Below are positions 4,778 to 45,046 of a DNA stretch of 64,000 nt, piece after piece (within the stretch, counting starts at the first letter, position 1; the number at the start of each line of letters is the position of its first letter). The DNA lies in NCBI GenBank assembly GCA_944393255.1, contig CALXZP010000010.1:1-64000 (forward strand). Reading direction: 5' to 3'. Both the position numbers and the translations under genes were made by a program. The stretch comes from an uncultured Clostridia bacterium (GTDB taxonomy: Bacteria > Bacillota > Clostridia > UBA1381). The notes below the pieces were generated by a model. That model did no database searches. It saw only the letters and a list, made by a program, of their open reading frames with translations, and had not been told where the DNA came from.

Positions 4778-4810
4778 ATTCGGCTCTCCTTTTAGTCCTG
4801 TATTAAGACC

Positions 4811-4839
4811 ATTATAACAGCAGACATTATTTTTGTCAA
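4811..4839 (-). promoter_or_regulatory. Near-consensus promoter for marR-adh-CMD operon
   Basis: On the minus strand TTGACA (4834-4839), exactly 17 bases, TATAAT (4811-4816). Downstream of the -10 lies TAGTCCTGTA (read on + at 4793-4802). A matching TAGTCCTATA lies 5' of the adh gene (minus strand, 4272-4281), a candidate shared operator. Confidence 0.85.
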
Positions 4840-4888
4840 TAGGTTTTCAATATTTTTAAAAAAATTTAATGTATAGTTAATACAGCAA

Positions 4889-4912
4889 AGCCGCCCATGT
4901 AAAAGGGCGGCT
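4889..4912 (-). terminator. Terminator of eno
   Basis: Perfect 8-base stem AGCCGCCC/GGGCGGCT with an 8-base loop, followed on the minus strand by a T-rich stretch. It lies just after the enolase stop codon. Confidence 0.7.
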
Positions 4913-4932
4913 GTTTCGTGCATTTTCAGAGT

Positions 4933-6234
<1,302 letters not shown>

Positions 6235-25306: not shown

Positions 25307-25330
25307 ACAGGCATTTTCCGCCTGTTTTTT
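25307..25330 (+). terminator. Terminator of mod operon
   Basis: ACAGGC/GCCTGT stem, 7-base loop, six T follow on the plus strand. Abuts the SLH-gene stop codon. Confidence 0.75.
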
Positions 25331-28300
25331 ATTGCTCGGTTATCTCATTTATGAAGAAATAAAGCTGATCCCTGCCGTCGGGCTGTGAGCTGTGCATATC
25401 TTCCGCCTCTACCGCCGATGCGGTAAGCTCGCTCACCTTATCTATCCATATAGTCGGATTTGACGCAGACTCGCTGTCATTCCTGAGAACTGCGTTCACA
25501 GTGAGCTTCGGAGCGGTTTCAGCATCCGCTCCCTTAGACACCTCTATGCCGCCGAACTCGTTGCCGCTAACGTCTGCGCTTCCTTCAAGCACGGCTTCCG
25601 CACCGTTTACAAGAATGCCTCCGTCCGCTCCCGTTACGGCAATATCCTTAAACGTGACTTTTGAAGCGCCGTACGCCTGAATTCCGTAAAGTCCCTGCCA
25701 GCCTTCCTCGTTGTTCGATATCTCTACCTTTATATTCTCAAAGCTGACCTCTCCGGCATTCACTATCTCTATACCGTCGATATTGTCAAACGTCACCGAC
25801 GCTCCGTCTGCGCCGATAAATGCTACGGCTCTTGATACCGTAAGCGTCTTATCAGCCGCTATATTTCCTTCGATCCTGATAGTTTCGATCTTTTCATCCG
25901 CCAGCGCCGCTTCAAGCCCTTCAATATCGGTCACCTCCGCTTCGGTATCGTCCTTCACCTCAGCAAGGAAATAATACATCTGATCCTTTTCGGGTCTTTC
26001 AGACCTGTTAAGTCCCGCTACGTCCACTACCGCTTCTGTAAGCACGCTTACCTTGTCTATCCACACTGTCGGCTCTGTTTCCGTTTCCGTATCGTTCCTG
26101 AGATTTTCGGCAGTACCGCTGAGCAGCGGCGCCGCTTCAAGCTCCGCGCCTCTTGATACCTCTATACCGCCGAACTCGTTTCCGCTCACATCCACAATGC
26201 CGCTGAGCGCCGCTTTAGCACCGTTTATCAGGATACCTCCGTCTGCGCCCGTCACCGTTACATTGTCGAATACCACATTGGAAGCGCCGTATGCCTGAAC
26301 TCCGTAAAGCCCCTGCCAGCCTTCTCCGTTGTTTATGACCTCGATCCTTATATCCTCAAGCGTTACATTGCCCGCGTTCACTATCTCTATACCGTCTGTA
26401 TTGTCAAAAATTATCCCGGCTCCGGCTCTCGCCGTATCCCGGCCCTTTATTAATATGCTTCTGTCTATAGACATCACTTCGCCGGCCTCTATCTCTCCGG
26501 TAACCGTTACGACCTTGACCTCGGGGTCTGCAAGCGCATCGCTAAGCTCCTCCGCAGTTGCGGCGTCCGCCGTCATTGTCTCAGGTATACCGTTTATGAA
26601 GTAATACTCCTGATCCTTTTCGGACATATCCACTCTTTCAAGACCGCTGACCTCGACCGCTGCCGCTGTAAGCTCGCTCACCTTGTCTATCCATACAGTC
26701 GGATTTGAAGCCGACTCGGTATCGTTTCTGAGATTTGACGCCGCTCCCGTAAGCTTCGGCGCTGACTCTGCGTCAGCTCCCTTGGACACCTCTATACCGC
26801 CGAACTCATTGCCGCTCACGTCCACAACGCCGCTGAGCGCCGCTTCGGCTCCGTTTACGAGAATACCGGCGTCAGCTCCGGTAACCGTCACATTTCTGAA
26901 TGTCACTCTTGAAGCGCCGTAAGCTTGAACTCCGTAAAGTCCCTGCCAGCCCTCCGCGTCGTTTGTTATCTCTATTTTTATATTTTCAAACGTCACATTT
27001 CCGGCATTCACGACCTCTATACCGTCTGTATTGTCGTATACGACCGCCGCATCATCCGAAGCGCCTATGATGCTTACGGCTCTCGCCACATTCAGCGTGC
27101 CTTCCGCATCTATGCGTCCGGATACGTTTATTACCTTGATGTTTTCATCGGCAAGCGCAGCCTCAAGCTCCGCCATATCCGCCGCCTCTGCTGAGGCGCC
27201 GCTGTTCTTTGCCGACAGATAATAATACATCTGGTCTTTTTCAGTCTTTTCTATCTGAGTAAGCCCTGTCACCTCTACCGCTGCGTCAGTAAGCTCGCTC
27301 ACCTTATCTATCCATATTGTCGGAGCTGTTTCTGACTCCGTGTCGTTTTTAAGATTTGACGCATCGCCCGTGAGCTTCGGAGCCGTCTCAACGCCGCTGC
27401 CCTTCGACACCTCTATACCGCCGAACTCATTGCCGCTAACGTCCACAACGCCTTCGAGAGCGACCTCAGCGCCGTTTACAAGAACCGCTGCATCGGCTCC
27501 GGATACCGAAACATCGGCAAGAGACAATTCGGCGCCGTACGCCTGTATGCCGTAGGAACCGTTCCATTTCCCGGTCTCATCCTGCAGCTTCATGCTGAGA
27601 GCCTTTACGGAAACGCCCTTGGCTCCTATTACCTGTATACCGTCCTTAACGCCTTCCGCAAATTCTATCGTATACTTTCCTCCGTCAAGAGTAAGCTCAT
27701 CGCTCGTTATCTCAATGGTCTCGTCTGCTGACAGGTTGCCGAGAAGCTTTATCTGTGCAGCCTTTCCGAGCTCCTCCGCCTTGGCAGCAGCGGCTTTCAG
27801 AGTTCCGAACGCATTTTTGCCTATGGTATAACGTTTTCTGTTCGATACAACGTTCCCTGTTCTGCCCTCATAGCTGCTGTTGACGATGATCTCCGTTTCA
27901 GCCGCGGTCGTTACGGAAGAACCGCCGCCTCCTCCGGAGCTGCCGCCCGAACTGCCGCCGCTGCCTCCGCCGGGAGCCGATGTAGGCGCGGGCGCATCGT
28001 CAGTCTCGCCGCCGTCCGAACCGCCGCTGTTATCCTCATACACGCTTCCGCCCTGCGTTATTATTTCGCCGGAAACAGTTGTGTTTTTCAGCGTAACAAC
28101 TCCGTCGCCAACTCCCGGAGTGAGGAAGAGATCTCCGTCTATTTCCATGTTTTCAAGCACTACATCGCCGGTATTTACTATTACGATACCGCTGAGCTTT
28201 TCTTCCGAGGTATATGTGCCCGGTTTATTGAAAAAGCCCTTTACGGCATTATTCACTACCGTAACGAACTCCGCCCTGCTCATATTGTTCTGCGGACGGA

Positions 28301-28832
28301 ACGAGCTGTCCTCAAATCCGTTCACATATCCCTTATCGGCAAGCGCATAGACCGCCTCCGCCGCCCATTCGCTTATGCTGTCGGCGTCGGTGAAAGACGG
28401 CGCTTCTTCATCCTTGAACACTATATCAAGCGCACGCGCCAGCATGACCACTACCTCCTCGCGGGTGACAGGCTCCTCCGGTCTCATTTCGCCTTCATAG
28501 CCCTGCATTATCCCGCTTGCCGCCAGCTTCAGCACCGCGTCCGTATACCATGTATCGCCGAGGTCGGAATATTCGTTATCAGCCTTATCGCCGTAGCTCA
28601 TTATGCGGTCAAGCATGACCGCCAGCTCTCCGCGGGTCATTGTATCATCGGGACGGAACATTCCTTCATAGCCGTGTATCACTTCATGACCCGACCATGT
28701 GCCTATAGCACCCGAGGCCCAATGTCCGTCTGTATCGTTAAAGCCGGCCGCAAACGCACCCGCCGTGCTCGACGCGATGACGGACAGGCAGATCGACTGC
28801 AAAATTGCCATTTTACGCATTTTATTATTCAT
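25329..28832 (-). CDS. S-layer-anchored repeat protein with beta-helix (pectate lyase-like) domains
   Basis: A 1167-residue surface protein. A signal peptide (to about residue 29) is followed by three SLH domains (about 30-205; e.g. FNDTDGHWASGAIG, FRPDDTMTRGELAVMLDRIM, FRPQNNMSRAEFV), which bind pyruvylated wall polymer. A Gly/Ser/Pro linker lies near 272-312. The rest is four tandem units of about 205 residues, each with a VDVSGNEFGGIEVSKG-like core and an NDT/NDSES...WIDKVSELT segment. The pattern suggests a right-handed beta-helix of parallel strands, but no lyase catalytic residues are recognised. Binding or adhesion is as likely as catalysis. The start is set at 28832, where AGGAG has correct spacing. 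Confidence 0.85.
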   Translation of the reverse strand: MNNKMRKMAILQSICLSVIASSTAGAFAAGFNDTDGHWASGAIGTWSGHEVIHGYEGMFRPDDTMTRGELAVMLDRIMSYGDKADNEYSDLGDTWYTDAVLKLAASGIMQGYEGEMRPEEPVTREEVVVMLARALDIVFKDEEAPSFTDADSISEWAAEAVYALADKGYVNGFEDSSFRPQNNMSRAEFVTVVNNAVKGFFNKPGTYTSEEKLSGIVIVNTGDVVLENMEIDGDLFLTPGVGDGVVTLKNTTVSGEIITQGGSVYEDNSGGSDGGETDDAPAPTSAPGGGSGGSSGGSSGGGGGSSVTTAAETEIIVNSSYEGRTGNVVSNRKRYTIGKNAFGTLKAAAAKAEELGKAAQIKLLGNLSADETIEITSDELTLDGGKYTIEFAEGVKDGIQVIGAKGVSVKALSMKLQDETGKWNGSYGIQAYGAELSLADVSVSGADAAVLVNGAEVALEGVVDVSGNEFGGIEVSKGSGVETAPKLTGDASNLKNDTESETAPTIWIDKVSELTDAAVEVTGLTQIEKTEKDQMYYYLSAKNSGASAEAADMAELEAALADENIKVINVSGRIDAEGTLNVARAVSIIGASDDAAVVYDNTDGIEVVNAGNVTFENIKIEITNDAEGWQGLYGVQAYGASRVTFRNVTVTGADAGILVNGAEAALSGVVDVSGNEFGGIEVSKGADAESAPKLTGAASNLRNDTESASNPTVWIDKVSELTAAAVEVSGLERVDMSEKDQEYYFINGIPETMTADAATAEELSDALADPEVKVVTVTGEIEAGEVMSIDRSILIKGRDTARAGAGIIFDNTDGIEIVNAGNVTLEDIRIEVINNGEGWQGLYGVQAYGASNVVFDNVTVTGADGGILINGAKAALSGIVDVSGNEFGGIEVSRGAELEAAPLLSGTAENLRNDTETETEPTVWIDKVSVLTEAVVDVAGLNRSERPEKDQMYYFLAEVKDDTEAEVTDIEGLEAALADEKIETIRIEGNIAADKTLTVSRAVAFIGADGASVTFDNIDGIEIVNAGEVSFENIKVEISNNEEGWQGLYGIQAYGASKVTFKDIAVTGADGGILVNGAEAVLEGSADVSGNEFGGIEVSKGADAETAPKLTVNAVLRNDSESASNPTIWIDKVSELTASAVEAEDMHSSQPDGRDQLYFFINEITEQ
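25340..27880 (-). repeat. Four tandem ~615-630 bp coding repeats in the SLH gene
   Basis: The DNA for the NEFGGIEV core recurs at about 25550, 26170, 26800 and 27420, a period of 615-630 bases. The inner units are most alike; the first (N-terminal) unit has diverged. Expansion by unequal crossing over is likely. Confidence 0.85.
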
Positions 28833-28908
28833 GATCATTCTCCTTTAAAGCTTAGTCGCCGGCGCCGGCAGCGCCGCATATGTTCGCAATAATTCCTATT
28901 ACTCCGAT

Positions 28909-30880: not shown

Positions 30881-33800
30881 TTATTCCGCTGCCTTTTCCT
30901 TCGTGGATACCGGCTTCATCTCGCTCAGCGAAGTCCATACGAACGCCTTCTGATTTGAGTTGACCTCGATATCCTGAACTATTTCGTCAGCTTCTACCTC
31001 TCCTCTGAATTCGATCTTTTCCAAAGCTCCGTTTGCCGCATAGGTCGCAACGATTATAATACCGTCCTCCGCATATACGGAAACCTTGCCCGGATCCTGA
31101 GTAGGCTCGTCGGTTATCGTTCCTCTGTCGTTATGTCCTACGATATCCAAACCGCTGTTAAGCTCCTCGTCAAACGAACAGCAGCTCAGGGTCCCGAGCG
31201 ACAGATAACCTACTACGCCGCCTGCGAAATCGCCTTCGCTCGTGACAAGTCCGTCGTTGCGGCAATTTGAGATATCGCTCTTATTATAGCCCACGATACC
31301 GCCCGCATAGTCGCCGGCGGAAACGGGACCGCTGTTATTGCAGTTGCTTACCGTATCGCCGTACTGCAGATAGCCCGCGATACCGCCCGCATAATATACA
31401 GCGTTGTGCACAGTGCCGCTGTTATTGCTGTCCTTGATTGTACCGCCTTCACTGTAGCCTGTGATACCGCCGACATAGTTATCCGTTACATCTCCGGTAT
31501 AAGAAGCTTTCTCAGCATTGCTTACTACGCTTCCGGAGTTATTGCTGCCCGTTATCGTACCTGAATTGAGATAACCCACGATACCGCCGAGCTTGTTTCT
31601 AAATCCGTCCATGCCGTTTTCTATCTTACCCGAGTTCGTGCAGCCGATAACTGAACCGCGGATGTTCTGACCTGCGATACCGCCGGCATAGGTCTCCTTA
31701 TTGGTTACTGTAATATCTCCGGTGTTTTCACAGTTTTCGATAACGCCGCCGTTTGCAAGAGTTCCGGCGATACCGCCCGCCTCTCTGAGCGCGTTTATTA
31801 CAACATTACTGCGGCAATTTTCGATCCTGCCGTAGTTCCAGCCTGCTATACCTCCTACTGCTGAGCTTGCCGTTATCTCGCCGGATACCGTAAGCCCGCG
31901 GACTGTGCCGGAAACCACACCGAACAAGCCCTGGCTCTTGCCGCTGTTATTGATATAGAGTCCTGTCACACTGTGACCGCCGCCCTCAAATACTCCGCCG
32001 AACGGATGTTTTCCGCCGATATCCTCGCAGCCTATCGCTGTCCAAGATATACCGCTTTCCGCGCTGCATACAGACGACAGGTCGATATCATTGGCAAGCG
32101 TTACTGTCTTGCCCTTATATTCGTTTCCGCCGTTTACTATCTCTGCAAATCTTACAAGATCCTCCGCCGACGCGATCTCTGTTACAAGCTCGCTGTCCGG
32201 CAGATACTGAGCCGACTCGGTGATAGTAAGAGACGGTCTCTGCGCCAGCTCGGCTGCGGACTGGACTGAGTACGCATCGTTTCCGCCGCCGGCGCTGTAG
32301 ATCATAAATGTGAGGATACCGTCCTCGCTGTCCTCAAGCGCCGATCTTACCGCGTCTGTAACGCTGATAGTCGAAGTCTTTGAAGTACCGGTCGAAGCCG
32401 CATAATAATCCTTCAATATACCCTCAGCCGCATTTGACGCATCATCTTCATCCGCACCGTTCGGGATGATACGGCCCGCCACATTCGCGCCGTTGAGCAG
32501 CGATACGGTATCACCGTCCGGCGTCGCAAATGCTGATATATTTGTAGCAGATGTTCCGTCAAGCATGAAGCTCTTTTCTATGCCGCTCTCGTCCCAATCG
32601 TTATTAGGAACATAGAACACAGCCTTTGTATTCGCAGTATTCCACGAATCGAATTTCAGCTCCGCATCAGATATTATGCCCTCGTTATAGCCTGACAGGT
32701 CAAACTTAACGAACGTAACTCTTCCGGCTCCGATAACGATATTCGGAGAGCTTCCGTAGCCCTGCTTGGAACCGTCGGTCTTGAACGAAACGCTGTTTAT
32801 CGCCGCTATCCTCGTTGTTCCGAACGTCTTCTTTGAATACTCTATAGATACCTCTGCATCGCCGTTCGGCATGGTGAAGGTACCGTCCGCATTTGCTGCA
32901 ACCTCTTCCTCCGTACCGGCCTTTTTGACCGTCACCAGCGCCTCATAGCCCGTGTTTGCGCCGCCGTTGACCGAGAACACGCCGCCCGGCACCGCATAGG
33001 CTGTGCCGTCGGTATATGTCTTTCCTGCCGACGTTACGGAAGGCTCGCCCTTGGGGTTCTTTGTCACATCGAATGTTATCGTATTCGCCTTTGTATATTC
33101 GACGGGAACATTTACAACACGCGAATATTCCGCTGTTTCTTCGCCCACGGTCTTTGTAACTGTGAGCGTAACGTTTGCAGACTCTTCATCACCCACGTAA
33201 TCGCTGTTATATACGAGCTGCTGTCCGTCAGCCTTTGCGGGAGCTGAGGAATCGCCGTATATCCCGAGAGTAACGGTACTTCCGTTTGCTGCCGCGCCCA
33301 AGGTGATGCCGCTGTTTTCCGTGACCTTTCCCGTACTTAAGGTCTCGTATGCGCTGATAAAATCATCATATGCGCTCTTGTATACCTCGCTGTCGGTATA
33401 CGTGAACACTATCTGAGGATAGACCCATTTGGTGTAGTCTGTCACGCCGCCGTTGTAAAGAAACGGTATAGCATTTCCGTTCAGTCTGGCGTTTTTGTCA
33501 GCATTCGTTGTCGCATACTCGGTCTTATTGTCCGTGCTGCCTCCGCTCGCATACTCTATATCAAGCGACAAAGTGCCGTTCTCCGCCGTTACCGCACTGC
33601 CTGTTATGTCTATATCTGTCTGCCATGTTTTGAGCGCGCCCGGATATTCGTTGAGTCCGTCCGCTTTGAGCGATGTGACAGAGCTGTCTTTGTTCATATC
33701 ATTGTTTCCGCCGCGCGGAACTGTATACTGCGCTGCGGGAACTTTACCCTCTATCGTTGTGAACGCATTGTCTATCACATACAGGGTGTGCTGAACGCCC

Positions 33801-34168
33801 GATCTGCTGACCACAGGAGTAAGGCGCAGCTTAGCGCTCTTTACGGTCTTGCCGCTCGCCGCGTCGTTTGTCATCATCGTTGACAGGTCGAACTGGAACT
33901 GTCCGCCTATCTCGTTGCTTCCATTCACTTCAACAACGCCGTTGCCCGACGCATCCTGGATAGCCGTTCCGGTTCTCCCTATCCTTGTCGAGCCGGCCTT
34001 TGACGCATAGATCGACCACTCGCCGCCGTTTGAGACAGAGCCTACGGCTCCGGTATCCGGCGCCGGCGCATCCGCCGCTGCCGCCATAGGCGGCATTACA
34101 GCAAAGCCTGCTGTAATTGCCGCCGCAGCCATAACTGCCGTCAGCTTTTTTTCAAATATATTTTTCAA
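30881..34168 (-). CDS. Large secreted GLUG-repeat protein with two DNRLRE/CBM96-like domains
   Basis: A 1095-residue secreted protein; TTG start with GGGAGG upstream; signal peptide about 1-31. Residues about 45-250 and 445-650 look like DNRLRE/CBM96-type beta-sandwich domains (TRIGRTG...; VTFVKFDLSGYNEG...). Between them is an immunoglobulin-like stretch with a linker. From about 665 to 1010 run GLUG motifs (GGIAGWNYGRIENC, GGIVGYLNSGTI and so on), seen in surface adhesins. The last 60 residues carry VYAEDGIIIVATY and a KAFVWTSLSEMKPVS element shared with other proteins in the window. It is the last gene of a four-gene operon and pairs with the GH28-like gene 23 bases upstream. No catalytic site is seen. 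Confidence 0.8.
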   Translation of the reverse strand: MKNIFEKKLTAVMAAAAITAGFAVMPPMAAAADAPAPDTGAVGSVSNGGEWSIYASKAGSTRIGRTGTAIQDASGNGVVEVNGSNEIGGQFQFDLSTMMTNDAASGKTVKSAKLRLTPVVSRSGVQHTLYVIDNAFTTIEGKVPAAQYTVPRGGNNDMNKDSSVTSLKADGLNEYPGALKTWQTDIDITGSAVTAENGTLSLDIEYASGGSTDNKTEYATTNADKNARLNGNAIPFLYNGGVTDYTKWVYPQIVFTYTDSEVYKSAYDDFISAYETLSTGKVTENSGITLGAAANGSTVTLGIYGDSSAPAKADGQQLVYNSDYVGDEESANVTLTVTKTVGEETAEYSRVVNVPVEYTKANTITFDVTKNPKGEPSVTSAGKTYTDGTAYAVPGGVFSVNGGANTGYEALVTVKKAGTEEEVAANADGTFTMPNGDAEVSIEYSKKTFGTTRIAAINSVSFKTDGSKQGYGSSPNIVIGAGRVTFVKFDLSGYNEGIISDAELKFDSWNTANTKAVFYVPNNDWDESGIEKSFMLDGTSATNISAFATPDGDTVSLLNGANVAGRIIPNGADEDDASNAAEGILKDYYAASTGTSKTSTISVTDAVRSALEDSEDGILTFMIYSAGGGNDAYSVQSAAELAQRPSLTITESAQYLPDSELVTEIASAEDLVRFAEIVNGGNEYKGKTVTLANDIDLSSVCSAESGISWTAIGCEDIGGKHPFGGVFEGGGHSVTGLYINNSGKSQGLFGVVSGTVRGLTVSGEITASSAVGGIAGWNYGRIENCRSNVVINALREAGGIAGTLANGGVIENCENTGDITVTNKETYAGGIAGQNIRGSVIGCTNSGKIENGMDGFRNKLGGIVGYLNSGTITGSNNSGSVVSNAEKASYTGDVTDNYVGGITGYSEGGTIKDSNNSGTVHNAVYYAGGIAGYLQYGDTVSNCNNSGPVSAGDYAGGIVGYNKSDISNCRNDGLVTSEGDFAGGVVGYLSLGTLSCCSFDEELNSGLDIVGHNDRGTITDEPTQDPGKVSVYAEDGIIIVATYAANGALEKIEFRGEVEADEIVQDIEVNSNQKAFVWTSLSEMKPVSTKEKAAE

Positions 34169-34191
34169 TTTGACATCCTCCCTTCATACCA

Positions 34192-37100
34192 TCACGGTTC
34201 CGCATCGCCCAGGATCTCCAGACTGGCAATATCGAGCCTTGTGCCTGAAAGCGGGATTATCTTTACATACTGTCCTATGATATGATCCTGACCCATCTCC
34301 GGATCGTGCTGGTTTGCAAACCATGTTGTCTTTACACGTTTGTTGAATTCGGCCGCCGCCTTGTCGTTGACTGCTCCGACTCCATGCTCGTCCGTATGTC
34401 CTGCGCTCCAGTCCGTTCCGTCCTTGGAAACATAGATACGGTACGCATGGGTAGGCGCGGGATCCTCCCAGGTGATCCTTACGCCTTTGATATGGCGCTG
34501 CGCACCAAGGTTTACAGTGATACCATCGCCTGTGAGCGAATTATCTTCCCAGTTATATACAGGATTTGTATCGCTCAGAGCCGAATACCATACCGTGCTT
34601 TCATCGCCGTCTATCGCATAGGAAGGATCCGAATCTTCCTCAGATACCTCCGCACTTGCCGAAGCTCCCTCAACTCTTGCGTAATCATAGAATTCCGGCC
34701 ATATATCCTCCGGCACAACATTCGGATCGTACACATAGCTCGATCCGCCGGACGCTACAAAATTGATATTCTTCGTATTGTTTCCGATACGGATATTTGC
34801 GTCCTCTGCACTCAGAGCGACCTCGCCGTTAATCTTAAGATTTTCAAATGTGACGTTCTGCGTCATTCCTTCTACGCCGTCGCTTGTTGAATAGCCCTCA
34901 ACTCTTCCGTCGAACGCGCTGCTGTTCTTATAGTCGATATCCTTAAAGTAAACGTTATTTATACCCTTGCCCGGATATGTCCATGTGCCGTATCTGTCCT
35001 GAGTTGTTATGAACAGCTCGCATATCTTGTTAGCCGCGCCGTCCTGTATACGTATATCATTGAAATAGATATTCGTTACCGTATTACCCTCTGAAACGTC
35101 CATTCGTATCGCCTGAGGCATGGAGCTTCCGTCGGCCTTAAACGCGTACTTGTTATACGTAAGGATATCTATATCCTCAAAGCTGCAGTTGTCGATAACA
35201 CGTCCGCCGTTCGGCGACGAGCTGTCGCCGTGGGTAGCAAAGTGGATCGGTCTTGCCAGATCCGGCATGAGCACGCAGTTTCTTACCTTGATATTCCTTA
35301 CATTTCCTGTGTCGCCCCAATGGTCGCCGTTCCAGCGCGGGCCGTAGATAGCGATACAGTCGTCGTTGCCGCGGAAGTAGCAGCCCTCTACCGTAACGTC
35401 CTCGGAGCAGAATATATCCATAGTGTCGCCCCACTTATGACGGCCGATAGATTTCAGATTTTTGACATATACATTTTTACTGTTCGCCACATTGAGGAAG
35501 TAACCGCCGTTATCGCCCCAGCCGTGGTTCAGACCCATAACACCTTCAATATAAACATTCTTCGTTTCATTTATGTTCATAGACGCATGACCCGGTCTGT
35601 ATATCAGTCCGTGTCCTATCAGCTTAGCGTTTATCGTGTTATCCAGAACAAGCTGACCGTTTATTACCGCGCCCGGCTCAAAATACCATGTCTGGTTGCT
35701 CTTTACGAACATCTGCCGCCATGCGTTTCCGTTAGCATAAAATCCCTGCTTTACATACACAACGTCTGTATTGTAGCTGGTGTCGATCACATCGCCTTTT
35801 GCCGCGTCCACTACGGTCACCGTCTCGCCCGCTGCCTTGATCTCATCCTCAGTCGGGATATCTATAGGATAGTCCGCCCAAATATGGATGTTGCGCCTTG
35901 TATCGCCGTTCGGATCCAGTACCACTCTCTGACCCGGTTCTACAACAAGCGTTATTATGTTTCCGCCGATCTCATAATCAAGATCTATACCGTAGCTTTC
36001 CGGATATACTTTTGTTTCGGCGTTAAGTCCGTTTTCTATATTATCTATACCGTCGCCGCCGCCTGTGCAGATGACCTTTACCTCAGTCGGTCCCGTGCAG
36101 TCGAAATAGACCATACCGGCCTGTCTTGTACCGTTGCTCATTACCTGCACCCTGTGGACGCCGATATCCTGCCAGCTGCTGTCATCCGAGCCGACCGGAC
36201 GCGCTTTTACCTTATATGTTCCGCTTATCTCAACACCGGACGGTATCGGATATGTCTTAAGACGCTCGTCGCTGGTAGGATCGGGATCCGGCTCATCCTT
36301 ACCCCTTAAAGTTCCGTAAAACTTCAGTTCGGAAAGAGAAAGCATTGTGCTATGATCGGACTGAAGGATTATATATCTGTAGCTCTTAACACCGTCTATC
36401 TCATGGTTGCCTCTTTCAGCATCTCCGCTGCCGCCGTTATCGCCGTCCCATGAACCTGTTCCGTAGAACGCCTCTCCGCCGTCGTGAGTTATGGACTGCA
36501 AGAGCGGGCTTGAGCTGTTAGCGCCGTCAGCGGCCGTGAACATTTCCGCCGTGAGAGGCTCGTTCGTACCGTACACCTTAAAGTGCGCTCTGTCCGGACG
36601 GTCTGCGTTCGCATACGCCACGATACGGCTCAATGCATACTTACTCTCCTCGCCCGCATCAAAGATGACCATTCCCGGATATGCAAGAAAATCACCGGAG
36701 GTAGTGAGGTTATTATCGCTCCATTCCTCGGGCATTGTCCCGTAAGACGCTACGGTCGTCAGCTCCGCAGGCTTTTCCGTAAGCTCGTTCATCTCAAGCT
36801 TGCCCTCGGGATCAGCCCATGCGTTGACGCTGATGGTCTTCGGCGCGTTCTCTACTGTATATGACGCAGATTTTCCATCCTCGGCTATCTCCGCGTCAAC
36901 TGTTCTGCCGTTTAAATTAAGCTTGGCAAATTCATAGCCGTCATTCGCCGTAACGGTTATTGTTACAGTACCGCCCTCATTGAACGGCTCGGTATACGAC
37001 ACTGTACAGCGCGACTGCGTGCCAACGGATACCGTGCCCTGCTCAGGCTCAGGCTCCTGATCTGCCGTTCTTACCGTACCGTAGAACTTAAGCTCTCCGA

Positions 37101-38397
37101 GTGAAAGCATATTCTGATTATCCGACTGCAGTATGATATATCTGTAGCCTCTGCTGCCGTCTATCTCATAATCACCCCTCGCGGCGTCTTTGCCGCCGCC
37201 GGAATTATCGCTCCATGAACCTGTTCCGAAAGCCCCGTCTCCGTCGTGCGTGAGCTCGGAAAGCTCCAGACTGCCGCTCGCGCCCGCTCCGGCTGTGAAC
37301 ATATCCGCCGTAAGCTCGCTGTTAGTGCCGAAAAGTCTGAAATGCGCCCTGCCCGGCATATCCTTTCTCGCATAGGCTATAACACGTTCCAAAGCGTATC
37401 TGTTCCCTTCTCCGGCGTCGAATACCGTCATTCCGGGAGCTGCTGCTAAATCGCCGCTGGTGAGGATATCGTTATCGCTCCACTCTGACGGCATTGACAC
37501 ATAGCTGTTGGGAAGGTCCGCCGGAGCTTCCGCTATCTCGGTCATATCAAGTTTACCGTCTATAGGATCGGCCCATGCATCCACAATGATCCTTACCGGA
37601 GCGTCTGCCACGATATATTCCGCCGTACCGTCGCCGGTCTGCGAAAGCTCAACCGTCTCGCCGTCTACATTCAGCTTGCTGACCTCATAGCCGGCCTCCG
37701 GCGTTACGGTGATGGTCACCTCACCGCCTACCTCAAATTCTTCAGTATAGCTTACAGTACAATTCTCCTGCGTCTCTGCCTCTACCCAGCCTGCGGGAGC
37801 ATGCATGAGCTTCATTTCTTTAAGAGTTGTATCTGTCTGCCATCTCGGGGAGCCTATATACAGGTAACGGTAATCGAGCCTACCTACTATATTTCTTCCC
37901 CAATATACCTTATCGCTGTCCTGATACCAGCCTACCTCAGCCGTGCTTATCAGCTCGACCTCTATACCCAGTGTCTCGGAATTAAAATTCGCATAGTTAT
38001 TTCCGCTGCCGCAGAGATCGCTGGCGCTTGACTGGGCTATAGCTTCCTGGATATTATCATTTGAAGCGAATATGTAAAGATCATCGCCGTTCACGCAGGT
38101 GAAATCTATAGCATTTACCTCAGCAAAGGTATTGCCTTCCCCCGCGTCCAGCACAAAGCCGCCAAGATACGGCTCTGTTTTTCTATTGATAACGACGCCT
38201 GAATCAACGTCGCCGTCAAACAGAGTTTCCCAATCTCCGTCCATGTCATAGGTGCCTATCACCGTCGGAGAGATATCGGCTGTGATATCCGTATATCCCA
38301 GCTCGTCGATCTGCGGCGTTGCGCCGGCTGTTATCGGCAGCAGTGAAACCGCCAATGCCGCGGCGGTGAACATTGCCGCTGCTCTTTTTTTGATCAT
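34192..38397 (-). CDS. Secreted multidomain GH28-like pectinase, two-module form
   Basis: A 1401-residue secreted protein; signal peptide about 1-26. After an N-terminal discoidin-like region come two modules of about 245 residues, each an InlB-B-like beta domain (ENCTVSYTEEFEVGGEVTIT) plus a discoidin-like domain ending in LGELKFYGTVR. A right-handed beta-helix (about 710-1230) follows. It has GH28-like strings: GDTMDIFCSEDVTVEGC, GNDDCIAIYGP (compare GDDCIAIKSG) and ATHGDSSSPNGG, with the usual GHG and RIK motifs altered. The C-terminus is an F5/8 type C domain with HAYRIYVSKDGTDW. Polygalacturonase or rhamnogalacturonase activity is inferred; the changed motifs make it an odd GH28 relative. 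Confidence 0.75.
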   Translation of the reverse strand: MIKKRAAAMFTAAALAVSLLPITAGATPQIDELGYTDITADISPTVIGTYDMDGDWETLFDGDVDSGVVINRKTEPYLGGFVLDAGEGNTFAEVNAIDFTCVNGDDLYIFASNDNIQEAIAQSSASDLCGSGNNYANFNSETLGIEVELISTAEVGWYQDSDKVYWGRNIVGRLDYRYLYIGSPRWQTDTTLKEMKLMHAPAGWVEAETQENCTVSYTEEFEVGGEVTITVTPEAGYEVSKLNVDGETVELSQTGDGTAEYIVADAPVRIIVDAWADPIDGKLDMTEIAEAPADLPNSYVSMPSEWSDNDILTSGDLAAAPGMTVFDAGEGNRYALERVIAYARKDMPGRAHFRLFGTNSELTADMFTAGAGASGSLELSELTHDGDGAFGTGSWSDNSGGGKDAARGDYEIDGSRGYRYIILQSDNQNMLSLGELKFYGTVRTADQEPEPEQGTVSVGTQSRCTVSYTEPFNEGGTVTITVTANDGYEFAKLNLNGRTVDAEIAEDGKSASYTVENAPKTISVNAWADPEGKLEMNELTEKPAELTTVASYGTMPEEWSDNNLTTSGDFLAYPGMVIFDAGEESKYALSRIVAYANADRPDRAHFKVYGTNEPLTAEMFTAADGANSSSPLLQSITHDGGEAFYGTGSWDGDNGGSGDAERGNHEIDGVKSYRYIILQSDHSTMLSLSELKFYGTLRGKDEPDPDPTSDERLKTYPIPSGVEISGTYKVKARPVGSDDSSWQDIGVHRVQVMSNGTRQAGMVYFDCTGPTEVKVICTGGGDGIDNIENGLNAETKVYPESYGIDLDYEIGGNIITLVVEPGQRVVLDPNGDTRRNIHIWADYPIDIPTEDEIKAAGETVTVVDAAKGDVIDTSYNTDVVYVKQGFYANGNAWRQMFVKSNQTWYFEPGAVINGQLVLDNTINAKLIGHGLIYRPGHASMNINETKNVYIEGVMGLNHGWGDNGGYFLNVANSKNVYVKNLKSIGRHKWGDTMDIFCSEDVTVEGCYFRGNDDCIAIYGPRWNGDHWGDTGNVRNIKVRNCVLMPDLARPIHFATHGDSSSPNGGRVIDNCSFEDIDILTYNKYAFKADGSSMPQAIRMDVSEGNTVTNIYFNDIRIQDGAANKICELFITTQDRYGTWTYPGKGINNVYFKDIDYKNSSAFDGRVEGYSTSDGVEGMTQNVTFENLKINGEVALSAEDANIRIGNNTKNINFVASGGSSYVYDPNVVPEDIWPEFYDYARVEGASASAEVSEEDSDPSYAIDGDESTVWYSALSDTNPVYNWEDNSLTGDGITVNLGAQRHIKGVRITWEDPAPTHAYRIYVSKDGTDWSAGHTDEHGVGAVNDKAAAEFNKRVKTTWFANQHDPEMGQDHIIGQYVKIIPLSGTRLDIASLEILGDAEP
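36290..37800 (-). repeat. Two tandem InlB-B-like + discoidin modules (~245 aa each)
   Basis: Each module begins with a QENCTVSY- or QSRCTVSY-like strand (near 37760 and 37005) and ends at ELKFYGT. The equivalent protein upstream has three such modules. Confidence 0.8.
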
Positions 38398-38421
38398 ATT
38401 CGTTTACCTCCTTAAAATATT

Positions 38422-38470
38422 TTCCGGCGGGCGGAGTATAAGCATAAGCTCCGCGCTCCGCCCGGCGGAA
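38422..38470 (-). promoter_or_regulatory. Strong intercistronic hairpin inside the pectin operon
   Basis: TTCCGGCGGGCGGAG and CTCCGCCCGGCGGAA pair with one short mismatch around a 19-base loop, in the 115-base gap between the two gene pairs. On the minus strand it is followed by AAAATATTTT, a poor T-tail, so it may attenuate or stabilise mRNA rather than end it. Confidence 0.6.
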
Positions 38471-38512
38471 TTGCTGCAAAATACTTCTGTATTCCGCAGA
38501 TACTGTACCGTC

Positions 38513-39964
38513 TTATTCGGCGTCCTTCTCTATAACAGATACCGGTTTCATCTCCTCAAAGGACGTCCATATGAACGCTTTCTGACCTGTTTCGAGATCA
38601 AGCTCACGGACTTCTTCATTCGCCCTGACCTCGCCTCTGATCTCGACCCTTGACAAGGCTTCATTTTCATCATACGTTGCAACGATGATGATACCGTCCT
38701 CAGCATATACAGATATCTTTTCCGTACCGCCGCCGTCCGGAGGCGTCGTGGGAGATACCGGAGGCGCCGTCGGCTTTTCCGCCTCGGCGGTTATTATTTT
38801 TCCCATCTCCTTGCCGCCCACGATCTCCAGATTGTCATTATTGGTATAAGTACAGTTATTTATCATACCGGATGACAGGTAGGCCGCAACGCCCCCGGCA
38901 TAGCCGTCCTCGCTTGAAGCCGTCACCTTTCCGGTGTTCTCGCAGACCGCTATGTCCGCTCTGCTGTATGCCGCGATACCTCCGGCATATGTGCCGCCCG
39001 TTACCGCGCCGCTGTTGCTGCAGTACATCACATTATCGCGGCTCTGTAAATAGCCCGCAACGCCGCCGGCATAATTCACCGCATTATGCACCATACCGCT
39101 GTTATCGCTGTATATCACCGTGCCGCCCTCGCTGTAGCCAACGATACCGCCGACGTAGTTATGCGTTGTGTCCGCCGTATACGATGCAACGGTCTCATAG
39201 CTTACAACATCGCCGGAATTATCGCCGTTTTCGATCTTTCCCGAGTTAAGGTATCCGACGATGCCGCCTATCTTGTTTCTGAAAGCGTCCTGAGTTTCCG
39301 CAGAGCCGTTCTCGATCTTTCCCGAGTTTTTGCAGTTGAGCACAAAGCCCCTGTTGTTCTGACCCGCGATACCGCCCGCATATGTCTCCTTATTGGTGAT
39401 GGTTATATCGCCCTTGTTCTCGCAGGCTTCGATGTACCCGCCGCTGCTGAGCGTTCCTGCAATGCCTCCGGCTTCTCTGCGCGCAGTTATGTCTACATTG
39501 CTGGTACAGTTGATGATACTGCCGTAGCTCCAGCCGGCGATACCGCCGGCTGCCGAGCTTGCCGTTATCTCACCCTCTACCGTCAAATTCTTTACCGTAC
39601 CGGAAACTATACCGAACAGCCCCTGCTCCTTGCCGCTCGAGCTGCTGATATGAAGTCCCTTTATGCTGTGACCGCCGCCGTCAAACGTGCCCGCAAACGC
39701 ATTTATTTTAAAACCATCGCTGTCCTGAGAGCCGATAGGCGTCCATTCCGTTCCCGACAGATCTATATCATTGGCAAGCTTCACTGTTCTGCCCTCATAG
39801 CTGTCGCCGCCGTTTACGGCTGCGGCAAGACTTACAAGCTCGGCCGCCGTTGTGATCTCCGCGTCCTCCGCCGATGCGCTCAGCGCGGGCATTACTGCAG
39901 CGCCCGCGCTGACTGCCGCGGCAGCGGCAAACGCAGTCAGCTTTCTTCCAAAAATATTCTTCAA
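38513..39964 (-). CDS. Secreted GLUG-repeat protein (short form)
   Basis: A 483-residue secreted protein; TTG start with AAGGAGGAC upstream, as in its paralog at 30881. Signal peptide about 1-32. From 35 to about 390 it follows the GLUG half of the 1095-residue paralog nearly segment by segment (GGIAGWSYGSIINC, NKETYAGGIAGQNNRG, GGVAGYLQSRDN). A Pro/Thr linker leads to the same C-terminal module (VYAEDGIIIVATY and KAFIWTSFEEMKPVS). The CBM96-like domains of the paralog are absent. It sits 27 bases after the 1684-residue GH28-like gene. Probable cell-surface or secreted binding partner of that enzyme; function not known. Confidence 0.8.
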   Translation of the reverse strand: MKNIFGRKLTAFAAAAAVSAGAAVMPALSASAEDAEITTAAELVSLAAAVNGGDSYEGRTVKLANDIDLSGTEWTPIGSQDSDGFKINAFAGTFDGGGHSIKGLHISSSSGKEQGLFGIVSGTVKNLTVEGEITASSAAGGIAGWSYGSIINCTSNVDITARREAGGIAGTLSSGGYIEACENKGDITITNKETYAGGIAGQNNRGFVLNCKNSGKIENGSAETQDAFRNKIGGIVGYLNSGKIENGDNSGDVVSYETVASYTADTTHNYVGGIVGYSEGGTVIYSDNSGMVHNAVNYAGGVAGYLQSRDNVMYCSNSGAVTGGTYAGGIAAYSRADIAVCENTGKVTASSEDGYAGGVAAYLSSGMINNCTYTNNDNLEIVGGKEMGKIITAEAEKPTAPPVSPTTPPDGGGTEKISVYAEDGIIIVATYDENEALSRVEIRGEVRANEEVRELDLETGQKAFIWTSFEEMKPVSVIEKDAE

Positions 39965-39991
39965 TTTAAAGTCCTCCTTCCCCGTTCACGA

Positions 39992-42900
39992 TCACCTGTT
40001 GTTCGGATCGACGTCCGGTGCAAGCTCGCCCAGTATCTCCAGGCTCGCAATATCCATTTTTGTACCTTCCTGAGGAATGATCTTTACATACTGTCCTATG
40101 ATCCAATCCGATCCGCCCTTCGGGTCGTATTGGTTCATGAACCATGTTGTTTTTACGCGCTTATTGTATTCCGCCCTCGATTTCGAGTTGACCGCGCCTA
40201 CGGAGTGCTCATCAGTATGACCTACGCTCCAGTCCGTTCCGTCCTTGGATACGTAGATACGGTAATCATGCCTGAGCGACGAATCGGCCCATGTTATCCT
40301 TACCGCGTTTATCAAGCGCTGCGTGCCGAGATCGACCGTTATGCCCTCTCCGGTCACTGTCTTTTTCTCATAGTCATATACCGAGCTGCCCGTACTCATG
40401 ATCGAGCTCCACGCGGTGCTCGTGTCACCGTCTATAGCATAGTTGGGATCTCCCGTTCCGTCAAGATCCGCCGAAGCCGATGTTTTTACTCCTTCTGCAG
40501 TAGCATAATCGTAGTATTCGGGCCAGATATCCTCCGGCACTATCTCCGGATTGTATCTGTATTCCGATGCGCCCGACTCAACGAAATTGATATTTCGTAC
40601 TCTTCCTTCGCTTCTTGTGCCCAGCTGCATATGCGCGGCTTCCGCATCAAGAGCTACCTCTCCGTTTATCGTCAGGTTCTCGAAAGTGATATTTTGTGAA
40701 AGAGCGCCGTTATAGTGGTTCACAGCTCCGTCTATCTGTCCGTTAAAGTCATTTTCGTTCATATACTGAACGTCCTTGAAGTATACGTTGTTTATTCCCT
40801 TGCCGTTTACCGTATTCGTGCCGTATCTGCCCTGTACCGTTACCTGGAAGTCCACAAGCTTGTTCGCCCGTCCGTCCTGAATACGGATATCGTCAAAGTA
40901 GATATTGCTTATCATATTGCCGTCCGCAGGATTCATCAGTATCCCCTGCGGGCCCGGCGCATATTTGCTGTATGTAAGAATATCGATATTCTCAAAACTG
41001 CAGTTGTCTATCACTCGTCCGCCGTTAGGCGATGTGCTGTCTCCGTGGACGCCGAGATGGATGGGTCTTGCAACGTCCGGCATGAGCACGCAGTCTCTCA
41101 CCTTTATATTCCTTACATTTCCCGTCTCGCCCCAGTAGTTGCCTGTCCAGCGCGGACCGTAGATAGCGATACAGTCGTCGTTGCCGCGGAAGAAGCATCC
41201 CTCTACCGTAACGTCCTCGGAACAGAATATGTCCATCGTGTCGCCCCACTTATGGCGTCCGATAGATTTCAGGTTCTTAACGTAAATGTTCTTACTGTTG
41301 GCTATATTGATAAAATATCCGCCGTTGTCATAAAAGCCGTGATTCAGACCCATCATGCCCTCTATGTGCGCGTCCGTAGCGTCGTTTACCGTTATAGACG
41401 CAAACAGCGGTCTGTATATAAGCCCTCGTCCTATGAGCTTTGCATTCGACGTATAATCCATGTTCATCATACCGTTTACGACTGCTCCGCCCTCAAAATA
41501 CCATGTCTGGTCGCTCTTAACGTAATGCGGGGTCTCCTGCCAGCCCTCGCTGTACCAGCCTTTCTTTACATATACCACATCGCTGTCATAGCTTTCGGCG
41601 AGGTTCTCGCCCTTTGACGCGTCTACTACCGTCACGGTCTTGCCTTCCGCTTCAAGCTCCTCCACTGTCGGCAGCTCTATCGGCTCATCAGCCCATATAT
41701 GCAGATTTCGCCTTGAATCATCGTTCGGATCGAGCACTATCCTCTGACCGGGCTTCATTACAAAAGTTATTATCTCTCCGCCCTCTTCGTAATCAAGGTC
41801 TATGCCGTAGCTTGCGGGATAGATGGATGTACTGCTGTTCAAGCCGTTTTCCATATCGTCGAAGCCGGCGCCCTTGCCAGTGCACATTACCTGTACCTCG
41901 GTTTCACCGGTGCAGTCAAAGAACGCCACGCTCGCATCTCTTGTATTGCTGCTCATTACCTGCACAACGTAGGTATCCACGATCTGCCATTCATCGTCTC
42001 CGGCTCCCACAGGACGGGCTTTCACTCTGTATGTCGTGTTGCGCGCCACTTCGTCCGGAAGATCGTATGTGATAAGGCGCGGATCGGTCACCTCAGAAGG
42101 ATCCTTGGGATCCGGATCGTCCTTGTCTCTTATCTCTCCGTAGAACTTGAGCTCCGCAAGCGACAGGGAATTCGTATTGTCCGCCTGGATGATTATATAT
42201 CTGTAGCCCTTGCCGCCCTGAACGTCGTAATACTGTCTTACGGCGTCTCCGTTGCCGCCGCCGTTGCCGTCCCATGAGCCTGTTCCGTAGAAGTCGCTCT
42301 CGTCGTTCGTGAGAACCTCCAGCTTTCCGGCTTTCGCTCCCTCCGATTCGGAGAACATATCGGCCGTCAGCTCGTCGTTCGTGCCGAACACCTTAAAGTG
42401 CGCTCTGCCCGGATAATATGCATTTGCATATGTTACAACACGGCTCAGCGCGTACTTATGATCCGCGCCCGCGTCGTATATAACCAGTCCCGGATACTTT
42501 GCTATATCTCCTACAGTCGTAGCGTCGTTATCGCTCCACTCCGCCGGCGGCGTCGAGAACGACGTTACCGTATCCAGTCCGTCGGGCTTTTCCGTAAGCG
42601 CGGTCATTGTCAGCCTGCCCTCAACAGCGTCCGCCCATGCTTTTATCGTGAGGTTTTTCGGAGCATACGCCAAAACGTACGTCGCAGTTTTTCTGTCCTC
42701 CGATACGACAGCCTTAACGGTCTTGTCATTGAGATTAAGCTTGCTTATCTCATAGCCTTCGTTAGCGGTCACCTTGACAGTTACGCTGTCGCCTTCATTG
42801 AAATCGGCTACAGGCTCTACCGTACAGTGTGAATGTACGCTGACAGTCGCTGTTCCCGGCTCTGCCGCCGGCTCATTCGGATCTCCGTCCTGCCTTACGG

Positions 42901-45046
42901 TACCGTAAAGCTTGAGCTCGCCGAGCGACATCATATTGGCATGGTCCGCCTGGATAACTATGTATCTGTAGCTTCTCTGCGTATCGATATCATACTCTCC
43001 TCGTACGGCGTCGATACCGCCTTTGCCGTTATCATAAAACGCGCCTGTTCCGAAGAATGCATTGTCATCATGTGTAAGCTCGGTAAATACCAGACCTCCG
43101 TTAGCTCCGTTCGCGTCCGTGAAATATTCGGATGTGAGCGGGTTCGCATTTGTACCGAAGATCTTGAAATGTGCTCTTCCGTTCATATCCTGTCTTGCAT
43201 AGGATATTACCTTGCTCAGCGCGTATCTGTATCCCTCGCCCGCGTCGAGCACCGCCAGTCCCGGATAATTTCTGAAATCGGCTGAGGATGTAACGTCGCC
43301 GTCGCTCCACGCCTCCGGAAGCGTTCCAAGCGCGTTGACTCCCGTAAGCTCACCGGCGGTAAGCTGTTTGATCTCTCTCAGATCGAACATGTTTTCCGTG
43401 GGATCCGCCCATGCATCGACCGTTATCTTTTCCTCTGCTCCCGTTACAGTCGCAGACGCTGTGTTATCTTCATCGTTCTTTGTAAGCTTGACAGTCCTGC
43501 CGTTAACGTTGACCTTTGCAGGCTCATAGCCTTCGTCAGCCGCAACCGTGATCTCCACAGCGCCGCCCACATAATATTCATCCGGTACGGTTACCGTACA
43601 ATTCTCCTGTGTGTTTACCGTTATATCCGTGCTCTTAGGCGGCTCCGGCGTCGGTTCCGGAGTCGGATCCGGCTCATCCGCGCCTCTTACGGAGCCGTAA
43701 AATTTGAGCTCCGAAAGCGCCATCATATGGGCATGATCGGCATGGATTATGATGTATCTGTAGCTCGTATCGCCGTCCACTTCATATTCGCCCCTCACGG
43801 AGTCGATGCCGCCGCCTCGGTTATTGTCGTATGAACCTGTTCCGAAGAATGCGTCATTGTCATGAGTGAGCGCGGTAAGCTTGCTGCTGCCGCTGTTCGC
43901 GCCGTCGCTGGCGGTGAACATATCCGCCGAAAGCTCCTCGTTCGTGCCGAAGATCTTGAAGTGGGCTCGGCCGTTCATATCCTGTGCCGCATACGATATA
44001 ACGCGGTCTATCTTGTACCTGTCGCCCTCATTGCCGTCTCCGCTCTCGGCGTCGAATATAGCCATGCCTCCATAATTCCTGAAGTCATATCTGCCTGTGG
44101 TATCGCCGTCGCTCCACTCAGACGGCAGAGTTCCGAAATTCGTTATCGTATCTATGTCCGGCTTTTCCGTGAGCGCGTTCATTGTCAGTCTGCCTTCGAG
44201 CGGGTCGGCCCATGCATCGACCGTTATCAGTGGGGAAGCACTGTCTATTGTATATGCAGCCGCTCCGGCTTCGCCGTCCTCTTTCGTCAGTCGCACTGTC
44301 TTGCCGTCTATATTCAGCTTGGCCGCTTCATATCCCTCATCCGGGATAACGGTTATGGTCACGCTTTCGCCGGCGTTGAACGTATCGGGATATTCAACAG
44401 TACAGTTCTGCTGCGTATTCACTGTCACCGAGCCTGCCGGCGCATGCATAAGCTTCATTTCATTAAGGACTGTTGCACCTTTGTTCCAGTTGGGAGTACC
44501 GATATAAACATAGCGGTAGTCAAGCCCATTGACTATGTTCCGTCCCCAAGGTACATTGTTGCTGTCCCAATAAAAACCCACCTCGGCAGTGCTTATCAGT
44601 TCAACGTCGATGCCCAGCTTTTCATCGTTAAACTCCGCATAGTTACTTCCGCAGAGGTCTGTAACGCCTTCGTCTACCTTTGTCTGCACAGCTTCCGCTA
44701 TATCGCTGTCTGATGCGAAAATATAGAGATTATCGCCCAATGAGCAGTTGAAATCTATCGCATCCACCTCTGCAAAGGTATTGCCCTCTCCCGCGTCCAT
44801 AACAAATCCGCCCAGATACGGCTGTGCGTTTCTGTCGATAGAAACGCTTGTATCCAAATCGCCGTCAAGCAATGCAGACGTGTCTCCGGTGAGACAGTAT
44901 ACAGCCGTGATCTGCGGCGCAATATCGGCTGTTATATCCGTATAGCCCGCTTCCGCTATCTGATTTGAAGCCCCGGCCGGTATCGGTATAACAGAAGCCG
45001 CCATTGCCGCAGCGGTAATAAATGTCGCTGCTCTTTTTTTGATCAT
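39992..45046 (-). CDS. Secreted multidomain GH28-like pectinase, three-module form
   Basis: A 1684-residue secreted protein. Start at 45046 follows AGGAGG; an upstream in-frame ATG (45097) lacks support. Signal peptide about 1-26. Layout as in the 34192 paralog but with three InlB-B-like + discoidin modules. The beta-helix (about 985-1510) carries GDTMDIFCSEDVTVEGC, GNDDCIAIYGP and GVHGDSTSPNGG. A C-terminal F5/8 type C domain has HDYRIYVSKDGTDW. First gene of the four-gene operon from the promoter at 45228-45256. Catalytic activity on pectin backbone is inferred from the fold and context. Confidence 0.75.
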   Translation of the reverse strand: MIKKRAATFITAAAMAASVIPIPAGASNQIAEAGYTDITADIAPQITAVYCLTGDTSALLDGDLDTSVSIDRNAQPYLGGFVMDAGEGNTFAEVDAIDFNCSLGDNLYIFASDSDIAEAVQTKVDEGVTDLCGSNYAEFNDEKLGIDVELISTAEVGFYWDSNNVPWGRNIVNGLDYRYVYIGTPNWNKGATVLNEMKLMHAPAGSVTVNTQQNCTVEYPDTFNAGESVTITVIPDEGYEAAKLNIDGKTVRLTKEDGEAGAAAYTIDSASPLITVDAWADPLEGRLTMNALTEKPDIDTITNFGTLPSEWSDGDTTGRYDFRNYGGMAIFDAESGDGNEGDRYKIDRVISYAAQDMNGRAHFKIFGTNEELSADMFTASDGANSGSSKLTALTHDNDAFFGTGSYDNNRGGGIDSVRGEYEVDGDTSYRYIIIHADHAHMMALSELKFYGSVRGADEPDPTPEPTPEPPKSTDITVNTQENCTVTVPDEYYVGGAVEITVAADEGYEPAKVNVNGRTVKLTKNDEDNTASATVTGAEEKITVDAWADPTENMFDLREIKQLTAGELTGVNALGTLPEAWSDGDVTSSADFRNYPGLAVLDAGEGYRYALSKVISYARQDMNGRAHFKIFGTNANPLTSEYFTDANGANGGLVFTELTHDDNAFFGTGAFYDNGKGGIDAVRGEYDIDTQRSYRYIVIQADHANMMSLGELKLYGTVRQDGDPNEPAAEPGTATVSVHSHCTVEPVADFNEGDSVTVKVTANEGYEISKLNLNDKTVKAVVSEDRKTATYVLAYAPKNLTIKAWADAVEGRLTMTALTEKPDGLDTVTSFSTPPAEWSDNDATTVGDIAKYPGLVIYDAGADHKYALSRVVTYANAYYPGRAHFKVFGTNDELTADMFSESEGAKAGKLEVLTNDESDFYGTGSWDGNGGGNGDAVRQYYDVQGGKGYRYIIIQADNTNSLSLAELKFYGEIRDKDDPDPKDPSEVTDPRLITYDLPDEVARNTTYRVKARPVGAGDDEWQIVDTYVVQVMSSNTRDASVAFFDCTGETEVQVMCTGKGAGFDDMENGLNSSTSIYPASYGIDLDYEEGGEIITFVMKPGQRIVLDPNDDSRRNLHIWADEPIELPTVEELEAEGKTVTVVDASKGENLAESYDSDVVYVKKGWYSEGWQETPHYVKSDQTWYFEGGAVVNGMMNMDYTSNAKLIGRGLIYRPLFASITVNDATDAHIEGMMGLNHGFYDNGGYFINIANSKNIYVKNLKSIGRHKWGDTMDIFCSEDVTVEGCFFRGNDDCIAIYGPRWTGNYWGETGNVRNIKVRDCVLMPDVARPIHLGVHGDSTSPNGGRVIDNCSFENIDILTYSKYAPGPQGILMNPADGNMISNIYFDDIRIQDGRANKLVDFQVTVQGRYGTNTVNGKGINNVYFKDVQYMNENDFNGQIDGAVNHYNGALSQNITFENLTINGEVALDAEAAHMQLGTRSEGRVRNINFVESGASEYRYNPEIVPEDIWPEYYDYATAEGVKTSASADLDGTGDPNYAIDGDTSTAWSSIMSTGSSVYDYEKKTVTGEGITVDLGTQRLINAVRITWADSSLRHDYRIYVSKDGTDWSVGHTDEHSVGAVNSKSRAEYNKRVKTTWFMNQYDPKGGSDWIIGQYVKIIPQEGTKMDIASLEILGELAPDVDPNNR
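42110..44440 (-). repeat. Three tandem InlB-B-like + discoidin modules
   Basis: Modules start near 44410, 43610 and 42830, each about 735-790 bases. Sequence such as WSDxDxT, RAHFKxFGTN and YRYIIIQADHxxM recurs in all. Confidence 0.85.

What the first reader, a model, noticed from the sequence alone, without database searches (positions are those of the whole stretch)
30881..45046. Tandem duplication of a two-gene unit: modular GH28-like enzyme plus GLUG surface protein
Two adjacent gene pairs on the minus strand have the same order and matching ends. Both GH28-like genes begin MIKKRAA, and both GLUG genes begin MKNIF with a TTG start. The pairs differ by whole domains: one GLUG protein gained two CBM96-like domains, and one enzyme has three modules where the other has two. 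An obligate enzyme-partner pair that diversifies by domain gain may be an uncharacterised pectin-attack system in which a GLUG protein acts with a beta-helix enzyme.
Basis: partly seen in the sequence, partly recalled or inferred. Interest (0 to 1): 0.75.

Follow-up and report, generated by a model that had tools for sequence, protein, structure and literature searches.

The report
Enzyme–GLUG gene pair, tandemly duplicated
Gut bacteria of the Ornithomonoglobus group carry a two-gene cassette, present twice here, in which a secreted beta-helix sugar-polymer hydrolase is always followed by the same GLUG-solenoid partner protein (fused to it in one species), so the two very probably work together on a polysaccharide; the partner's job and the exact substrate are still unknown.

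Summary
On the minus strand lie ENZ2 (39992-45046), GLUG2 (38513-39964), ENZ1 (34192-38397) and GLUG1 (30881-34168). The enzymes are 59% identical over 1213 aa, the GLUG proteins 59% over 457 aa.

All ten enzyme copies found, in three bacterial families, have a GLUG gene directly downstream, once fused in frame. In 391 Clostridia genomes, enzyme and full-length GLUG partner occur in the same four. Enzyme and GLUG distances correlate (Mantel r 0.80). Paired GLUGs share charged and aromatic residues that unpaired GLUGs mostly lack.

Corrections: the duplication is old; GLUG2 lost the CBM96 block rather than GLUG1 gaining it; generic GLUG domains are common without this enzyme.

The enzyme has the GH28/GH49 (clan GH-N) fold. 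Its sequence is GH28-like, below the Pfam cut-off in the window; sandwich plus helix resemble GH49; the GHG and RIK motifs are not kept. Pectin is plausible, not shown.

The GLUG solenoid most resembles the substrate-gating beta-helix of Gram-positive IgA1 proteases. I infer a non-catalytic substrate-holding or tethering partner; a second enzyme is not excluded. AlphaFold on the natural fusion gave no confident docking.

The parts
39992..45046 (-). ENZ2, 1684-aa secreted enzyme: signal peptide, N-terminal module, three repeated InlB-plus-sandwich modules, sandwich plus beta-helix catalytic region and C-terminal F5/8C domain (40025-42073)
38513..39964 (-). GLUG2, 483-aa partner without the CBM96 block; TTG start 27 nt after the ENZ2 stop
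34192..38397 (-). ENZ1, 1401-aa secreted enzyme with two repeated InlB-plus-sandwich modules; catalytic region with F5/8C domain 34207-36258
30881..34168 (-). GLUG1, 1095-aa partner: CBM96-like block, GLUG solenoid, C-terminal domain; TTG start 23 nt after the ENZ1 stop
32216..32821 (-). CBM96 domain in GLUG1 (PF24517, 39.4 bits, cut-off 26)
31121..32179 (-). GLUG solenoid of GLUG1 (residues 664-1016) with the pair-specific residues R795 E796 / K824 E825 / E850 N851 / F856 R857 / N922 A923
34747..35847 (-). ENZ1 right-handed beta-helix (model residues 138-504), with the conserved acids D278, D281, D299, D300 (numbering of the catalytic segment, which starts at protein residue 714)
35848..36258 (-). 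N-terminal beta-sandwich of the ENZ1 catalytic region, aligned with the N-terminal part of GH49 enzymes
34237..34662 (-). C-terminal F5/8 type C domain of ENZ1
38398..38512 (-). intergenic stretch between the two pairs, folding into two strong hairpins (-44.8 kcal/mol, z -4.55); in Ornithomonoglobus this gap is only 26 nt

Best explanation
It is a two-gene cassette, duplicated in tandem long ago, that makes a secreted two-protein polysaccharide-degrading unit. The first gene encodes a clan GH-N (GH28/GH49-like) beta-helix glycoside hydrolase, probably inverting, with a C-terminal F5/8C domain and in some copies extra N-terminal modules. The second gene, about 20-35 nt downstream, encodes a partner built of CBM96-like domains, a GLUG beta-solenoid and a C-terminal domain (a dockerin in the Lachnospiraceae copy). 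I infer that the partner does not cut but binds the same polymer along one face of its solenoid, through a conserved charged and aromatic ladder, and helps to hold or tether the enzyme at its substrate. Shown: gene pairing, co-inheritance, the natural fusion, folds at model level, pair-specific residues. Inferred: catalysis, substrate (a pectic polymer at about even odds), the partner's binding role, any physical contact.
For: Every enzyme copy is directly followed by the GLUG gene: window (2), Ornithomonoglobus (2, one fused in frame, 2223 aa, no N), G069 (2), G009, G047, Ca. Roslinia and a Lachnospiraceae genome. Flanking genes differ from place to place. In 391 class genomes the enzyme and the full-length GLUG (over 1400 bits; next best 157) occur in the same four. 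The ENZ and GLUG trees agree in their main clades; Mantel r 0.80, p 5e-5, and 0.77, p 1e-4 within the family. D278, D281, D299, D300 are invariant across the enzymes and the standalone GH28 relatives. Fold: GH49 3wwg Z 29.9 over sandwich and helix, GH28 1bhe Z 25.9 over the helix. GLUG solenoid pLDDT mostly above 90; its best solved matches are the beta-helices of IgA1 proteases, Z 28.6, a domain that gates substrate (PMC7695701). R795, E796, K824, E850, N851, F856, R857, N922, A923 are invariant in paired GLUGs and at 15% or less in unpaired ones. Dockerin over the cut-off in the Lachnospiraceae GLUG (25.4 vs 22.9).
Against: No confident docking in the AlphaFold model of the natural fusion (pTM 0.58). 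The GH28 GHG and RIK motifs are not conserved. The window enzymes score below the Pfam GH28 cut-off (19-20 vs 22.9 for ENZ1). One carrier genome has no pectate lyase match. No characterised member of either protein family turned up in the papers searched.
Confidence: 0.55

Rival explanations
1. The GLUG partner is itself catalytic: a second beta-helix enzyme whose active site is the conserved R-E / K-E / E-N / F-R ladder, so the pair is two enzymes acting on one polymer.
For: Pair-specific acidic and basic residues sit just before the (A/V)GG turn of successive coils and are mostly absent from unpaired GLUGs. The solenoid is the only candidate catalytic domain in a protein that also carries CBM96.
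Against: No GLUG domain with enzymatic activity was found in the papers searched; the nearest solved solenoids are gating beta-helices of IgA1 proteases. Ligand binding would select the same kind of ladder.
Confidence: 0.18
2. The GLUG partner is a docking or surface-tethering subunit that binds the enzyme directly; the ladder is a protein-protein interface.
For: Strict adjacency, natural fusion, co-inheritance; in the Lachnospiraceae pair the dockerin sits on GLUG and not on the enzyme.
Against: The fusion model shows no confident relative placement and a low-confidence linker.
Confidence: 0.2
3. The two genes are only neighbours, moved together by chance or shared regulation: a generic surface GLUG adhesin beside a glycan hydrolase.
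For: GLUG domains are common in these bacteria (63 of 70 genomes).
Against: 10 of 10 adjacency in different flanking contexts and three families, strict co-occurrence, fusion, pair-specific residues.
Confidence: 0.07

Closest known systems
GH28 (polygalacturonase, rhamnogalacturonase, xylogalacturonan hydrolase)
   Same: Beta-helix fold; Pfam GH28 matched at some level in 14 of 14 aligned members (best E 1e-15); first acid and DD pair 21 residues apart, which is the GH28 spacing from my own knowledge.
   Different: Window members fall below the Pfam cut-off; GHG and RIK motifs not kept; extra N-terminal sandwich; GLUG partner.
GH49 (isopullulanase, dextranase)
   Same: N-terminal beta-sandwich followed by beta-helix aligns over model residues 1-502, Z 27-30.
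   Different: Almost no sequence match (1 of 14 members, E 0.069).
GLUG beta-helix of Gram-positive IgA1 metalloproteases
   Same: Same solenoid fold, Z 27-29 over about 270 residues, 20-21% identity.
   Different: There a gating domain inside a protease (PMC7695701); here a separate protein (or a fusion) paired with a glycan hydrolase and carrying CBM96 domains.
CBM96 (alginate-binding module; DNRLRE domain)
   Same: The second N-terminal domain of GLUG1 scores over the Pfam cut-off.
   Different: Here attached to a GLUG solenoid, not to an alginate lyase; ligand unknown.

Membership tests
GH28 | Pfam PF00295 score at or above 22.9 bits | tested here: inconclusive
   Window ENZ1 19.2 bits (20.2 as segment), ENZ2 no hit at E 0.01; orthologues L060 24.0 and G069 27.6 pass
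GH28 | Three catalytic aspartates (NTD ... DD) | tested here: met
   WGD278 and D299, D300 invariant in A3, spacing 21; the reference motif is from my own knowledge
GH28 | GHG and RIK motifs | tested here: not met
   Replaced by DLA/DVA and non-conserved residues by inspection of A3
GH28 | Hydrolysis of galacturonan-type polymers | not testable with these tools
   needs an assay
GH49 | N-terminal sandwich plus beta-helix fold | tested here: met
   3wwg, 1wmr, 6nzs, 1ogm aligned over model residues 1-502, Z 27-30; with the fusion model GH28 and GH49 tie
GH49 | Pfam PF03718 sequence match | tested here: not met
   1 of 14 members at E 0.069
GLUG domain (PF07581) | score over 20.5 bits | tested here: met
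   75.1 and 59.7 bits
CBM96 (PF24517) | score over 26 bits | tested here: met
   second N-terminal domain of GLUG1, 39.4 bits; the first domain has no match
F5/8 type C | score over 28.2 bits | tested here: met
   C-terminal domain of both enzymes, 40.4 and 42.8 bits; three N-terminal ENZ1 segments scanned alone had no Pfam match
Pectin utilisation system | Substrate is pectic | tested here: inconclusive
   GH95-CE8 protein in the window; other GH28 genes in six of seven carrier genomes, pectate lyase over the cut-off in three of seven

The most novel reading that the evidence does not exclude
The GLUG solenoid of the pair is a catalytic beta-helix of a new family, its active site formed by the pair-specific charged ladder, so that the cassette encodes two different polysaccharide-cutting beta-helices made as an obligate pair.
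Probability: 0.18. Interest if true: 0.75.

Novelty: new variant of a known kind. Interest (0 to 1): 0.55.

Why it matters
GLUG domains are widespread in gut Firmicutes and have almost no described role in glycan breakdown in the papers I could search. A cassette in which a GLUG protein is strictly tied to one hydrolase, with a natural fusion and pair-specific residues, gives a concrete, testable case for what a GLUG solenoid does.

Tried and rejected
Sequence search of solved structures: no relative of the GLUG proteins, and of the enzyme only its F5/8C domain and a very weak 5olp match (E 0.29). The first alignment of the fusion with enzyme and GLUG rows misplaced the GLUG rows; a stop-read-through row of the window, used only as an alignment anchor, and a smaller row set fixed it. 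A riboswitch or other known RNA upstream: none in Rfam over the gathering score. GH49 homologues for a profile comparison: none over the cut-off in 249 genomes. A recent duplication: rejected, since the two window pairs fall on branches separated by pairs of other genomes. Chance neighbours: rejected on adjacency, co-occurrence, fusion and correlated distances. Fold search of the GLUG part by itself was not run; it was seen only within the fusion model.

Full report
Check of the observation. The four genes are as described and sit in one run on the minus strand: ENZ2 39992-45046, GLUG2 38513-39964, ENZ1 34192-38397, GLUG1 30881-34168. ENZ1 and ENZ2 share 59% over 1213 aa, GLUG1 and GLUG2 59% over 457 aa, with matching DNA repeats across the unit. 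The searches of the window's genome showed GLUG hits only in these two proteins and no third full copy of the enzyme; a module-only protein lies on another contig.

Obligate pairing. In 70 family genomes strong enzyme hits occur in five genomes, and strong GLUG hits in the same five, next to the enzyme. Named relatives include Ca. Ornithomonoglobus merdipullorum, Ca. Roslinia caecavium and a rabbit Lachnospiraceae. Counting the window, ten enzyme copies with downstream sequence all have the GLUG gene directly behind. In Ornithomonoglobus one pair is a single 2223-aa ORF without ambiguous bases. Among 391 class genomes the enzyme and the full-length GLUG occur in the same four. Three of these four are of one family, so the co-occurrence is not four independent events; the Roslinia and Lachnospiraceae loci add two further families. 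Flanking genes differ from place to place, among them (by eye) clpC, gyrase or topoisomerase genes and uvrC. Generic GLUG domains without the enzyme are common (63 of 70 genomes), so the pairing is a property of this GLUG type, not of the GLUG domain.

History. The enzyme and GLUG trees agree in their main clades and their distance matrices correlate (r 0.80, p 5e-5; r 0.77, p 1e-4 within the family). The G069a and Ornithomonoglobus fusion pairs fall between the two window pairs, so the duplication is old. The CBM96 block is present in GLUG1 and the G069a copy but missing in GLUG2 and the fusion, which are sisters (100/99 support): it was lost. The N-terminal enzyme modules occur in ENZ1, ENZ2, the fusion and G069a and not in the other complete copies, so they were probably gained in that group, although the branch that joins ENZ1 to it is only 85/87 and the G009 copy is cut at its contig end. 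The GLUG start codon is TTG in all seven unfused copies of the family and ATG in Roslinia and Lachnospiraceae.

The enzyme. Pfam gives F5/8C and InlB repeats, and GH28 below the cut-off in the window but over it in some orthologues. Distant relatives are standalone GH28 proteins of about 480 aa in large-genome bacteria that look like Paenibacillaceae (my guess; the records are unnamed), one of them beside GH43, GH88 and GH76 genes. D278, D281, D299 and D300 are invariant; GHG and RIK are not kept. The AlphaFold model (pLDDT 82.6, pTM 0.79) matches GH49 over sandwich plus helix (Z 29.9) and GH28 over the helix (Z 25.9); with the fusion model the two tie. GH28 and GH49 form clan GH-N (PMC7939477).

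The partner. The solenoid is predicted with high confidence; the fusion as a whole has pTM 0.58, so no docking is shown. Its best solved matches are the beta-helices of Gram-positive IgA1 proteases (Z 27-29), which gate substrate (PMC7695701). All ten paired GLUGs keep R795, E796, K824, E850, N851, F856, R857, N922 and A923, which unpaired GLUG domains carry at 15% or less; E825, N858, S889, Y890, D893, N897 and Y898 are also invariant in the pairs, but partly present, or too thinly sampled, in the unpaired ones. The glycine, cysteine and asparagine core is common to both. These residues sit mostly just before the (A/V)GG turn of successive coils; that they form one face is my inference. CBM96 is confirmed for the second N-terminal domain (CBM96 described in PMC9971899). 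The Lachnospiraceae partner ends in a dockerin.

Verdict. The pairing and its co-inheritance are well supported; the enzyme is a divergent clan GH-N hydrolase; the partner's role as substrate holder or tether, and the pectic substrate, are inferences.

Noticed in passing
window 58619-63949: A 1776-aa protein combines a GH95 catalytic domain with a pectinesterase (CE8) domain.
   Followed up: partly
window 25329-28838: A 1169-aa protein with three SLH domains and Pectate_lyase_5 / beta-helix repeats, likely a cell-surface protein.
   Followed up: no
L044 5653-7392: In the same genome, a 579-aa protein resembles the N-terminal modules of ENZ1 but has no catalytic part, and lies beside an AraC-like regulator (4556-5395) that looks related to one next to the Ornithomonoglobus pairs (L046 13112-13972).
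   Followed up: partly
window 38398-38512: The gap between the two pairs folds into two strong hairpins (z -4.55) and may set different expression of the second pair; the Ornithomonoglobus gap is too short for it.
   Followed up: partly
L060 14112-14363: The Lachnospiraceae GLUG partner ends in a dockerin, hinting at a cellulosome-like attachment.
   Followed up: partly
L047 279-1850: A 523-aa module-only protein sits directly upstream of the G069 enzyme.
   Followed up: no
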